Source: an uncultured Pelagibacteraceae bacterium (lineage in GTDB: Bacteria; Pseudomonadota; Alphaproteobacteria; Pelagibacterales; Pelagibacteraceae). Taken from it: a stretch of 64,000 bases of DNA. The notes under the pieces were generated by a model, which was not told the origin of the DNA, ran no database searches, and saw nothing but the letters and a program-made list of their open reading frames with translations. Numbering within the stretch: position 1 is the first letter of the stretch; the number at the start of each line of letters is the position of its first letter. This document shows positions 39,043 through 48,878 of this stretch, one piece after another. Location of the stretch: the NCBI GenBank assembly GCA_902601315.1, contig CACKMS010000005.1:1-64000 (forward strand). The letters are read 5' to 3'. Both the position numbers and the translations under genes were made by a program.

Positions 39043-39108
39043 TGTGGATAATTTGAACATATCTATATTTAGTATTGAATTAAAAAATTAAATTTATATA
39101 TAAACCAT

Positions 39109-39429
39109 ATGGCAACATTAAAAATTACAGACGAAAATTTTGATACAGAAGTCTTAAAATCATCCAAACCAATTGTAGTTGATTTTTGGGCAGAATGGTG
39201 CGGACCATGCAAAATGGTAGGACCGATTTTAGAGGAAATCTCAGATGAAATGGCAAAAGATGTATCTATTGCAAAACATAACATTGATGAAGAGCCTAAT
39301 ACGCCAACAAAATATGGTGTCAGAGGTATACCTACAATGTTACTTTTCAAAGATGGAGAGTTAAAATCGACTAAAGTTGGAGCAACACCAAAATCAGATA
39401 TTGTTTCTTGGATAAAAGAAAATATCTAA
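39109..39429 (+). CDS. trxA: thioredoxin
   Basis: 106-aa cytosolic thioredoxin with active site WCGPC (Cys31, Cys34), the preceding buried Asp in VVDFWAEW, and the cis-proline RGIPTMLLF. It is convergent with folC with a four-base overlap, as in many alphaproteobacteria where trxA lies beside folC. Confidence 0.98.
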
Positions 39430-45173: not shown

Positions 45174-46904
45174 TTATTCAGTTTCCTTTTTCTTTTTATC
45201 GTCTAACTTTTCAGAAAGTGATGAGAACGGAAGGTTTTTTCCAGAAAGTGGCGAGCTAAATTTATTAACTGCCTCTTTGTTTTGAAGTTCCTCTAGCAGT
45301 TTAATACTTAAACTTACTTTTCTTTTATCAAAATTTAATTCTGCTATTGCAGCATCAATTCGTTCTCCACCAACAAATCTTGAGGGCCTTGCATCTGCTG
45401 AATTTACTGCTATTTGAGATTTCTTAATTATGAATTCTAGGTCGCATCCCTCTGGTTTTACCATTAAACCTTTGCTATCAGACGATGTAACTTGGACAGT
45501 GATTGTATCATTTACTTTTTTATCTTTGAACCAACTAAATGGATCCTTTTCTAGTTGTTTTAGACCAACTCTTACTTTTTGATCGTCTTTTTTAATTTCT
45601 AAAATTTTAACTTTTAATTTATCTCCCTTTTTATATTTTTTTAATTCATCTTCAGGTTTTCCAATATATGAAAGATCATTTGAATGTAAGAAGCCATCAA
45701 TATCGAAATCACCAAGTTTTATATAAAGCGCATATTCGTTTGCACTTGTTACAACTCCATTGATGTCTGTACCAACGGGATGTTTATTTTCTAAAGCTGT
45801 AAATGGATTTTCAGTTGTAAGTCTGTGTGAAATAGCAACTCTTCTTTTATCCTTGTCAATTTCAGTAATTACACAATCAATCTGATCACCAACTTTAAAA
45901 AGTTTTTTTGGCGAAGTATTCTTCTTCGTCCAGCTAATTTCGCTACTATGCAATAGCGTGCTTAAGCCTGGCTCAAGTTCACAAAAACAACCATAATCTG
46001 TGATTTTTACAACCTTAACTTTATATGGTTTTCCAGTTTCATAATTTGAAATATGTTCAAAAGGATCTGGAGATAATTGTTTAATTGAACAGCCAATTTG
46101 AAGTTTATCCATATCAATCGAAATAACTTTCAAATCATGCTTTTCACCAATATTAAAAATTTCATCAGGGTGGTTTACCCTTGAATAGGAAATTTCTTGC
46201 AGATGAACTAATACGTCAATTTCGTTGTTAACCTCAAAAAAACATCCAAAAGATGAATAACCTTTAACTACAGCATCCTTAATAATGTCACCAACTTTAA
46301 ATTTTTCTATTATTTTTGCTTTGTCCTCTTTTTTATGGGAAGACACTATTTGCCTTCTAGATACGCACGCATTTCCTCTGATCTTATCTAACTTAATAAT
46401 TGCAAATTTTTGTTCCACACCGATTAAATGATCAATATTTTTCATTGGCTTATCAGAAATTTGTGATCCAGGACAAAACATGAGTGAACCTGTCTCTAAA
46501 TGTTCAACTATTACACCACCCTTGCATTTAGATGTGATCTTTCCATTAATTGACAGATTATCTTCATAAGCCTTCTCTAACTCGTACCAGCCTTTTATTT
46601 TTTGTGCTTTCTGCGCTGAAACTATAACGTCACCATTTTTATCCTCAATCTTTTCAAGCAGAACAGATACTGTTGCACCCTCCACAACTTTATCTTGCAT
46701 ACCAATCATTTTCATTTCATTGATGTCAATAACAGGTTCACTTTTAAGACCGGGTATGAATAAAAATATATATTTGTCAGTTATTTTGGTAATTTTTCCT
46801 TCGATTATTTTGCCTTCTTCTATCTTGTCTTTTGATAACTGGCTGTTAAGTAATTTTTCAAACTGTTGAGTGGCTGGTGAGCTTAAATCTTTATAAATTT
46901 CCAT
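45174..46904 (-). CDS. rpsA: 30S ribosomal protein S1
   Basis: 576 aa with six S1 RNA-binding repeats across about residues 30-545 (for example KGYSSFGCFFEVNNEIDVLVH and KITDYGCFCELEPGLSTLLHSSEISW). S1 unfolds mRNA at the 30S subunit, important where Shine-Dalgarno sequences are weak. It overlaps cmk by 14 bases; cmk-rpsA-ihfB is a conserved order. Confidence 0.97.
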   Translation of the reverse strand: MEIYKDLSSPATQQFEKLLNSQLSKDKIEEGKIIEGKITKITDKYIFLFIPGLKSEPVIDINEMKMIGMQDKVVEGATVSVLLEKIEDKNGDVIVSAQKAQKIKGWYELEKAYEDNLSINGKITSKCKGGVIVEHLETGSLMFCPGSQISDKPMKNIDHLIGVEQKFAIIKLDKIRGNACVSRRQIVSSHKKEDKAKIIEKFKVGDIIKDAVVKGYSSFGCFFEVNNEIDVLVHLQEISYSRVNHPDEIFNIGEKHDLKVISIDMDKLQIGCSIKQLSPDPFEHISNYETGKPYKVKVVKITDYGCFCELEPGLSTLLHSSEISWTKKNTSPKKLFKVGDQIDCVITEIDKDKRRVAISHRLTTENPFTALENKHPVGTDINGVVTSANEYALYIKLGDFDIDGFLHSNDLSYIGKPEDELKKYKKGDKLKVKILEIKKDDQKVRVGLKQLEKDPFSWFKDKKVNDTITVQVTSSDSKGLMVKPEGCDLEFIIKKSQIAVNSADARPSRFVGGERIDAAIAELNFDKRKVSLSIKLLEELQNKEAVNKFSSPLSGKNLPFSSLSEKLDDKKKKETE

Positions 46905-47556
46905 ATTTTTCTTTAATAGAACTTCTCACTAAATTAGTAAGTTTTGCCTCCATTTGTTTAATAGTTAATTTAGTGGTGTCGACTAATACAGCATTTTCGG
47001 TCATAATCAAGGGACTAATTTTTCTTTTAGTGTCTTCATTATCCCTTTGAATTAAAGCTTTTTCGACTTGTTTTAAAGTTATCTTTTTATTTAGACTTTT
47101 AAACTCTTTAAGTCTTCTTTTTGCTTTTTCTTTTGTAGAGCACGTGAAGAAAAGTTTTAAGTCCGCTGTGGGCATTATTTTTGAACCTATATCTCTTCCT
47201 TCAACAACAACTAATCTATACTTATTAATAAAATTTTTTTGAAAACTTTTTAAAGCTTTTCTAACATAAGATTTTTTTGCAATAATTGATGATAATTTTG
47301 CTACCTCAGGATTATAAAGTTTTTTATTTTGTAATTTTTTTAAAGTTATGGACTTTGCAATTTTACCAATAAATCTTACGTTATATTTATTTTTATTCTC
47401 TAAAACTTTAAGAGCACAAAATCTATACAAGGTTCCACTTGAAAGGAATTTCATATTTAATTTTTTTGCAATTTGCTTACCACCAGTTGTTTTCCCAGAA
47501 GCACTACTTCCATCTGCTGCAATCTTAAATTCAATATTTCTATTTAGTTTTTTCAG
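46891..47556 (-). CDS. cmk: cytidylate kinase, CTG start
   Basis: CMP/dCMP kinase of 221 aa. The P-loop region (IAADGSSASGKTTGGKQIAK) lies upstream of the first ATG (47454), so an ATG start would remove the nucleotide-binding loop. The in-frame stretch back to a TAG contains no ATG, GTG or TTG. A CTG at 47556-47554 overlaps the aroA TGA as CTGA and is preceded, after 10 bases, by AGGAG (47571-47567), so CTG is the best start. Later motifs (EGRDIGSKIMPTADLKLFFT) are normal. It overlaps rpsA by 14 bases. Confidence 0.88.
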   Translation of the reverse strand: MKKLNRNIEFKIAADGSSASGKTTGGKQIAKKLNMKFLSSGTLYRFCALKVLENKNKYNVRFIGKIAKSITLKKLQNKKLYNPEVAKLSSIIAKKSYVRKALKSFQKNFINKYRLVVVEGRDIGSKIMPTADLKLFFTCSTKEKAKRRLKEFKSLNKKITLKQVEKALIQRDNEDTKRKISPLIMTENAVLVDTTKLTIKQMEAKLTNLVRSSIKEKYGNL

Positions 47557-48878
47557 TTTATGCTAGCTCCTAATTTTTTTAAAATTTTAAGAAATGTGGG
47601 AAATGATGTATTAATTGAGTCTTTATCGTTTATTTCCCATTTACCACCAAACGATAATGCAGCGATACAAGACATCATAAAAACTCTATGATCTTTTAAA
47701 TAATTTTTAATATAAATATTCTTGTTGATCTCGATATTAGGATTACCAAATATTTTAAGATTATCCTTTTTTCTCTCAACTTTAACTCCAATATTCTTTA
47801 GAAAACTTATAGCAATATCTAATCTTGGACTTTCTTTTTTATTCAGCTCTCCTAAATCTTTAAAGCTAGATATACCTTTTGCTTTTGCGGCTATTAAAAA
47901 AATTATTAGGAATTCATCTATCGCAGCACTATTTAAATATGAAGGACAATTAAAACCTTTAATATTTTTTGAACTCTCAACAACTATGTCAGATGTTTCC
48001 TCTCCTTTATACATTTGTTTATTTTTTAAACTAATTTTGCAATTCATTTTTTTTAAAATTGTAATTATTCCAGTTCTACTTTTATTGATATTAATTTTTT
48101 TAATTCTAATTTTTGAATTTTTTGAAAGAGCAGTTAAGACTATAAAAAAAGCACATGAACTAATATCTCCTGGAACATCATAATCAAATGCATCAAATTG
48201 CTTTAGACCATTAACTTCTATAAAATCAAAATTTTTATTTGATTTTATTTTGATTGGTAATTTTAAATATTTAAATAAAAGTTCAGTATGATTTCTTGAT
48301 TTTTTTGCTTTTATAATAGTGGTTCCAGGAGTATTTAAAGCTGCAAGCATTACAGAGCTTTTACATTGCGCACTTCCTCTTGTCTCAAAATAATTTATTG
48401 GTCTTAAAAAGTTAGTACCTAATATTTCAACTGGTAATGAGTTTGTTTTTGATCTTATATTTGTCCCAAATTTTTTTAATGGCTCTGTTACTCTTGAAAA
48501 ATCCCTTTTGGACAGACTTTTATCTCCAATAATTTTTACAGTTTTTTCTGATTTTACCAATAAACCTAATATCAACCGTGCAAGTGTTCCCGAGTTTCCT
48601 GCGCAGATTGTTGTTTTTTTTTTTATATTAAAGCCGTTTAATCCATATCCAAGAATTTTATATTTATTTCCTACTTTCTTGCATTCGATACCAAGTTTTT
48701 TTATACATCTAATTGCATTTAATACATCCTCAGATTCCAGTAAATTTGATATTGTAGAAACACCAATAGCTTGGCTCGCCAACAAAATTGCCCTGATAGA
48801 TAGACTTTTATCTGATGATACTTCTATTGTTTTATTAAATGGTTTAATTTTGTTAAATATTTTTATCTGGTTTGGCAT
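47553..48878 (-). CDS. aroA: 3-phosphoshikimate 1-carboxyvinyltransferase
   Basis: EPSP synthase, sixth shikimate step, 441 aa. It contains SDKSLSIRAILLASQA, the PEP-site GNSGTLARLILGLL (compare GNAGTxxR), RGSAQCKSSVMLAALN and KESPRLD. The loop GNSGT has Ser where class I plant-type enzymes have Ala. Its stop overlaps the cmk start; it begins seven bases after lptB. Confidence 0.95.
   Translation of the reverse strand: MPNQIKIFNKIKPFNKTIEVSSDKSLSIRAILLASQAIGVSTISNLLESEDVLNAIRCIKKLGIECKKVGNKYKILGYGLNGFNIKKKTTICAGNSGTLARLILGLLVKSEKTVKIIGDKSLSKRDFSRVTEPLKKFGTNIRSKTNSLPVEILGTNFLRPINYFETRGSAQCKSSVMLAALNTPGTTIIKAKKSRNHTELLFKYLKLPIKIKSNKNFDFIEVNGLKQFDAFDYDVPGDISSCAFFIVLTALSKNSKIRIKKININKSRTGIITILKKMNCKISLKNKQMYKGEETSDIVVESSKNIKGFNCPSYLNSAAIDEFLIIFLIAAKAKGISSFKDLGELNKKESPRLDIAISFLKNIGVKVERKKDNLKIFGNPNIEINKNIYIKNYLKDHRVFMMSCIAALSFGGKWEINDKDSINTSFPTFLKILKKLGASIN
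47567..47571 (-). promoter_or_regulatory. Shine-Dalgarno element deciding the cmk start
   Basis: AGGAG on the minus strand, within the last codons of aroA and 10 bases before the CTG start of cmk. Strong purine boxes of this kind are rare here, which makes it informative. Confidence 0.65.

What the first reader, a model, noticed from the sequence alone, without database searches (positions are those of the whole stretch)
47550..47575. cmk most likely starts at CTG, overlapping the aroA stop
The P-loop lies upstream of any ATG/GTG/TTG. The only in-frame candidates are CTG and ATT codons; CTG sits in a CTGA overlap like the common ATGA and has an AGGAG 10 bases upstream. CTG starts are rare.
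Basis: partly seen in the sequence, partly recalled or inferred. Interest (0 to 1): 0.6.

Follow-up and report, generated by a model that had tools for sequence, protein, structure and literature searches.

The report
Rare CTG start of cmk
In this SAR11-type ocean bacterium the gene for cytidylate kinase most probably begins with the very rare start codon CTG, which replaces the TTG used by its relatives through a change that is silent in the overlapping gene aroA; it is a well-supported but small curiosity that gene finders will tend to misread.

Summary
On the minus strand aroA ends AAC TGA (47553-47555) and an intact cmk frame crosses this stop. The P-loop (47488-47514) precedes the first in-frame ATG/GTG/TTG (ATG, 47452-47454). 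Before it the frame offers only CTG (47554-47556) and two ATT codons.

Of 47 distinct aroA-cmk junctions from the same clade, 41 have the identical 4-base in-frame overlap: TTG 37, CTG 2, GTG 1, ATG 1. The rival ATT codon is ATT, ATA, ATC, GTT, GTA or ACT in the 31 junctions of equal spacing, never ATG/GTG/TTG. CTG also stands in a separate assembly, AG-898-G21; parsimony gives two changes, though cmk alone does not exclude one origin. The window differs from relatives by AAT>AAC, silent for aroA's last Asn. cmk is single-copy in the assembly and under purifying selection.

In 462 kb of this genome, 39 in-frame NTGA overlaps have ATG 29, TTG 5, GTG 4 and CTG 1, cmk alone. This is an isolated, probably genuine CTG start, a new instance of a known rarity. 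Initiation itself is inferred; no proteomic or ribosome data were available.

The parts
47554..47556 (-). CTG, most probable start codon of cmk, overlapping the aroA stop in CTGA
   Evidence: the same slot is TTG, GTG, ATG or CTG in 41 of 47 distinct clade junctions
46891..47556 (-). cmk, cytidylate kinase, 221 residues plus stop when read from CTG
   Evidence: translation; TIGR00017 140.1 bits against cut-off 135.55, match over residues 10-202; the version from the ATG has 109.6 bits; only PF02224 match in its assembly
47488..47514 (-). P-loop of cmk, DGSSASGKT, upstream of the first ATG
47553..48878 (-). aroA; its stop TGA (47553-47555) overlaps the CTG, and its last codon AAC (47556-47558) supplies the C
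47567..47571 (-). AGGAG, Shine-Dalgarno-like, 10 bases before CTG; also aroA codons for Leu-Gly-Ala
   Evidence: anti-Shine-Dalgarno ACCTCCTTT in the genome's 16S
47533..47535 (-). ATT, rival start codon seven codons before the P-loop; judged not the start
   Evidence: aligned codon in the 31 equal-spacing junctions: ATT 22, ATA 3, GTT 2, ATC 2, GTA 1, ACT 1
47452..47454 (-). first in-frame ATG; a start there would remove the P-loop

Best explanation
cmk is translated from the CTG at 47556-47554. Shown by sequence: in relatives the slot is mostly a TTG inside a TTGA overlap with the aroA stop, and in this lineage the base before TGA is C (aroA's last codon AAC where most relatives with Asn have AAT), which makes the start CTG without changing AroA. 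Inferred: ribosomes that finish aroA at UGA, perhaps held by AGGAG pairing, step back one base and re-initiate with fMet-tRNA at CUG, pairing at the second and third positions. A low yield is presumably enough for cytidylate kinase. The change looks like tolerated drift at an overlap, not a special code.
For: 41 of 47 distinct clade junctions have an in-frame NTGA overlap at this spot, N = T 37, C 2, G 1, A 1, with 35, 38, 41 or 44 bases from stop to P-loop; these 41 are also the only TGA-ended junctions of the 47, so every TGA there is in frame. TGA is only 64 of 440 stops in the genome sample. CTG is shared with AG-898-G21 (L044; L050 is a duplicate), whose aroA lies in another clade (grouping it with the window rejected, p = 0.0015 for aroA, 1e-53 for aroA and cmk joined), and parsimony gives 2 changes on the joined, aroA and cmk trees. 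cmk dN/dS of the window against seven relatives is 0.10-0.18, and 0.11-0.16 in five pairs of relatives: the gene is not decaying. No second cmk in the assembly.
Against: No protein or ribosome data. In E. coli CUG gives 0.86% of AUG activity and makes up 0.024% of bacterial starts (PMC11497404, passages), and UUG to CUG was seen for 1 of 2,468 ancestral UUG starts (PMC5622118, passages). Conservation of NTG is partly tied to aroA, which contributes its first base. With cmk alone the window and L044 cannot be ruled out as one group (p = 0.204), so one origin plus recombination is possible. Family profile and solved structures do not separate CTG from ATT: TIGR00017 matches from residue 10, and the best stretch begins at residue 10-12 in 6 of 11 solved chains and at 80-90 in the other 5, all past the ATT at residue 8. 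Two relatives of another family (L030, L031) have an ATG seven codons before the P-loop, so a start at ATT would give a workable length. The assembly is estimated 86% complete, so a second cmk in a missing part cannot be excluded.
Confidence: 0.86

Rival explanations
1. cmk starts at the ATT at 47535-47533, giving MEFKIAADGSS..., a length seen in other SAR11 relatives with ATG at that place.
For: It also precedes the P-loop; L030 and L031 (another family) have ATG seven codons before their P-loop. The codon is ATT in 22 of 31 aligned clade junctions. Profile and structure matches begin after it and so do not speak against it.
Against: The aligned codon is ATA, ATC, GTT, GTA or ACT in 9 of 31 and never ATG, GTG or TTG, while the NTG slot upstream takes all four NTG forms. 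The codons between the slot and the P-loop stay open and change length by whole codons in the 41 overlap junctions. The AGGAG is 31 bases away from it. ATT is quoted at about 0.3% of ATG activity in PMC10666635 (passage), no better than CTG.
Confidence: 0.07
2. Base-calling or assembly error: the true codon is TTG (or another start).
For: The nearest relatives L032 and L033 have TTG here; only one draft assembly of this species was examined.
Against: The same CTG stands in a separate assembly of another lineage (L044); the surrounding sequence and spacing are normal; it is a single-base difference that is silent in aroA.
Confidence: 0.05
3. Cmk is made as an AroA-Cmk fusion by a -1 shift of ribosomes before the aroA stop.
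For: A fused aroA/cmk family exists (PRK11860; this protein scores 113.5 bits against a cut-off of 943); the cmk frame is -1 relative to aroA and open from just before the stop.
Against: A TAG three codons before CTG leaves only a few bases for the shift; aroA's last codon varies between relatives (AAT, GAT, ATT, CAG, AGA and others) and I saw no shared slippery run by eye; six clade junctions separate the genes differently, four of them with plain ATG starts (L069, L071, L072, L111).
Confidence: 0.02

Closest known systems
CUG as a bacterial start codon (a listed start in NCBI table 11, recalled; measured in E. coli)
   Same: NTG codon read by initiator tRNA with a first-position mismatch; rare use given as 0.024% of bacterial starts (PMC11497404, passages)
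   Different: Here supported by phylogeny of the slot only, not by expression data; sits in a stop/start overlap
4-base stop/start overlap with termination-reinitiation (PMC10666635, passages)
   Same: Same geometry, same strand, downstream gene in the -1 frame, anti-Shine-Dalgarno present
   Different: The overlapping start is CTG; the only one of 39 in-frame NTGA overlaps in the 462 kb sampled
Bacterial operon aroA-cmk-rpsA
   Same: aroA, cmk and a 576-aa protein that looks like ribosomal protein S1 follow one another (the S1 name and the operon are recalled, not searched)
   Different: Only the start codon

Membership tests
CTG (CUG) translation start | Conserved coding sequence begins before any ATG/GTG/TTG | tested here: met
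   P-loop at 47488-47514, first ATG at 47454; TIGR00017 cut-off passed from CTG, not from ATG (a version from ATT was not scored)
CTG (CUG) translation start | Homologous slot holds accepted start codons in relatives | tested here: met
   TTG 37, GTG 1, ATG 1, CTG 2 in 41 of 47 distinct clade junctions
CTG (CUG) translation start | Protein N terminus or initiating ribosomes mapped to CTG | not testable with these tools
   no proteomic or ribosome data held
CTG (CUG) translation start | Not a sequencing error | tested here: inconclusive
   a second assembly (L044) has CTG too; own reads not available
4-base overlap with translational coupling | In-frame NTG sharing its TG with the upstream TGA stop | tested here: met
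   CTGA at 47553-47556
4-base overlap with translational coupling | Translation of cmk depends on translation of aroA | not testable with these tools
   needs a reporter experiment
cytidylate kinase (cmk) | Match above the curated cut-off | tested here: met
   TIGR00017 140.1 bits, cut-off 135.55; PF02224 159.2 bits, cut-off 26
fused AroA/CMK (PRK11860) | One continuous reading frame, score over cut-off | tested here: not met
   separate frames; cmk protein 113.5 bits against 943

The most novel reading that the evidence does not exclude
In SAR11, overlaps that keep initiation running by re-initiation tolerate CUG well enough that TTG to CTG drifts in repeatedly through silent changes of the upstream gene, so CUG there is far stronger than its 0.86% in E. 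coli; a partner in this may be the initiator tRNA of this genome, whose anticodon stem has A-U instead of G-C at 29-41.
Probability: 0.15. Interest if true: 0.5.

Novelty: new member of a known kind. Interest (0 to 1): 0.3.

Why it matters
It is a clean natural case in which a start codon class that is very weak in E. coli (CUG) seems to drive a conserved nucleotide kinase, with the relatives' TTG and the silent cause of the difference both visible. It gives a direct test of whether a stop/start overlap rescues weak start codons. In practice, gene callers limited to ATG/GTG/TTG would start this gene at the ATG and drop the P-loop, and that product falls under the NCBI cut-off for cmk.

Tried and rejected
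ATT as the start: disfavoured on the aligned codons. Frameshift fusion with aroA: disfavoured on the variable last codons of aroA and the upstream TAG. Pseudogene: disfavoured on dN/dS. Many CTG starts in the genome: not seen in the sample, 1 of 39 in-frame NTGA overlaps (frames of 100 codons or more chosen mechanically, not curated genes; starts outside such overlaps were looked at only through the next test). Two other frames had their first ATG/GTG/TTG at least 60 bases past the upstream stop (L123:4972-6930 and window 39069-39425), with no CTG among their earlier codons listed; not followed.

Selection against C at the slot: aroA's last Asn is AAC in 2 of 26 (37-junction set) against 154 of 942 elsewhere in aroA; binomial P(2 or fewer) 0.18, so no clear depletion, and the rows are related. 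G1338A in 16S (said in PMC11497404, Discussion part 1, to raise initiation at CUG): the GGAA run is unchanged (placement by recalled numbering). Literature searches: (listings only, except the three papers). No paper on a CTG start of cmk or in SAR11 showed (20 of 39 papers listed) or (1 paper); these searches were narrow and the library is partial.

Rows dropped: each genome search gave loci for at most its 30 best matches, so weaker relatives (325 of 399 genomes matched) were not read at the junction. Of 86 loci held for cmk (L001-L073, L100-L112), 60 gave a junction by the script's rule (P-loop motif, upstream frame of 300 codons or more); 26 did not (L007-L029 and the non-SAR11 L046-L048) and were not counted; 11 of the 60 were duplicates; L030 and L031 (other family) were left out of the 47. 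The trees used 37 distinct junctions (6 rows with another start arrangement or GTG left out of the change count) or 24 chosen from them, before L100-L112 were fetched.

Full report
What is there. The window is part of a contig of a SAR11-type genome (G000, 1,205,625 bases in 31 contigs, 86% complete; 14 of the 17 loci are titled Pelagibacteraceae). On the minus strand aroA (47553-48878) is followed by cmk. The cmk frame is open from 47562 to 46891. Its P-loop DGSSASGKT is at 47514-47488 and the first ATG/GTG/TTG is the ATG at 47454, so the default ORF of 187 aa lacks the P-loop. Before the P-loop the frame holds one CTG (47556-47554) and two ATT codons (47535, 47523) as near-start codons. CTG shares TG with aroA's TGA. 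AGGAG lies 10 bases before CTG, and the 16S tail reads ACCTCCTTT. The protein from CTG is 221 aa and passes the NCBI cmk cut-off (140.1 against 135.55 bits, match from residue 10); the ATG version does not (109.6). PF02224 matches once in the assembly.

The same junction in relatives. Searches of the genus (399, 398 and 312 genomes drawn, overlapping sets), of 101 relatives and of genome contigs (17 loci), the genome searches giving loci for their best matches only, yielded 60 loci with a readable junction, 49 distinct, 47 in the same clade of the genus. In 41 of 47 an in-frame NTGA overlap stands at the spot: TTG 37, CTG 2, GTG 1 (L067), ATG 1 (L105). The six others, as I read them: ATG directly after a TAA stop (L069, L071, L111), ATG inside the aroA end (L072), and TTG inside the aroA end (L006, L070). 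Among the 41 the distance from stop to P-loop is 35, 38, 41 or 44 bases, differing by whole codons. No TGA-ended clade junction is out of frame. aroA ends in TGA in 41 of 47, while TGA is 64 of 440 stops in the genome sample (binomial p about 2e-28, not corrected for relatedness). So the slot is kept as a start.

How CTG arose. L032, for example, reads ATA AAT TGA; the window reads ATA AAC TGA. The difference is silent in aroA (Asn) and makes TTG into CTG. The other CTG genome, AG-898-G21 (L044; L050 is a duplicate), has AAC TGA too. On the joined tree the window groups with L033 and L044 with L003 (GOM-A1), and parsimony gives two changes; the same count holds for aroA and cmk apart. Grouping the two CTG rows is rejected for aroA (p 0.0015) and for both genes joined (p 1e-53), but not for cmk alone (p 0.204). 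L003 and L044 have an aroA of one clade and a cmk close to the window's, with identity to L032 rising from about 70% to about 90% near the end of aroA, so recombination has passed close to the junction, and a single origin with transfer cannot be excluded.

Is it working. dN/dS of cmk (P-loop to stop) between the window and seven relatives is 0.10-0.18, and 0.11-0.16 in five pairs of relatives. The CTG copy is not decaying.

How unusual in this genome. In 462 kb (window plus the 20 stretches) with 440 mechanically chosen frames of 100 codons or more and 261 close same-strand pairs, in-frame NTGA overlaps are ATGA 29, TTGA 5, GTGA 4, CTGA 1, the last being cmk. By the literature CUG is 0.024% of bacterial starts with 0.86% of AUG activity in E. 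coli (PMC11497404; passages and Discussion part 1 seen); UUG switched to CUG in 1 of 2,468 (PMC5622118; passages and abstract seen).

Mechanism. Inferred: coupled re-initiation. Ribosomes ending at UGA sit one base from placing CUG in the P site, and AGGAG may hold them. AGGAG is also the coding of Leu-Gly-Ala in aroA, so its conservation does not prove the role; some relatives, for example L004 and L062, lack GGAG there and still have TTG. The initiator tRNA of this genome (L090) has a 29-41 A-U pair with G-C at 30-40 and 31-39 (numbering recalled); whether that relaxes start choice is unknown, and I did not look at it in other genomes.

Against the reading. Profile and structure matches begin past the ATT codon and so do not separate CTG from ATT; the first base of the slot is also aroA's; AAC is not clearly depleted at the slot (2 of 26 against 154 of 942), which fits tolerance of CTG but would also fit a slot that no longer matters; no expression data exist here.

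Verdict. It is a real but small oddity: a new instance of a known rare start.

Noticed in passing
L003 and L044, last part of aroA (about 100-200 bases before the cmk P-loop): aroA and cmk have different histories: aroA of GOM-A1 and AG-898-G21 falls in another clade, while cmk is close to the window's clade; identity to L032 jumps near the end of aroA, a sign of recombination.
   Followed up: partly
L090:1498-1574 (-): Initiator tRNA of this genome has A-U instead of G-C at anticodon-stem position 29-41, so two rather than three G-C pairs next to the loop (numbering recalled).
   Followed up: no
window 39069-39425 (-): Frame whose first ATG/GTG/TTG (a TTG) is 75 bases after the upstream stop although the frame is open from there; a late or unusual start, or just an intergenic gap.
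   Followed up: no
L123:4972-6930 (+): Long frame whose first ATG is 66 bases after the upstream stop though open before it.
   Followed up: no
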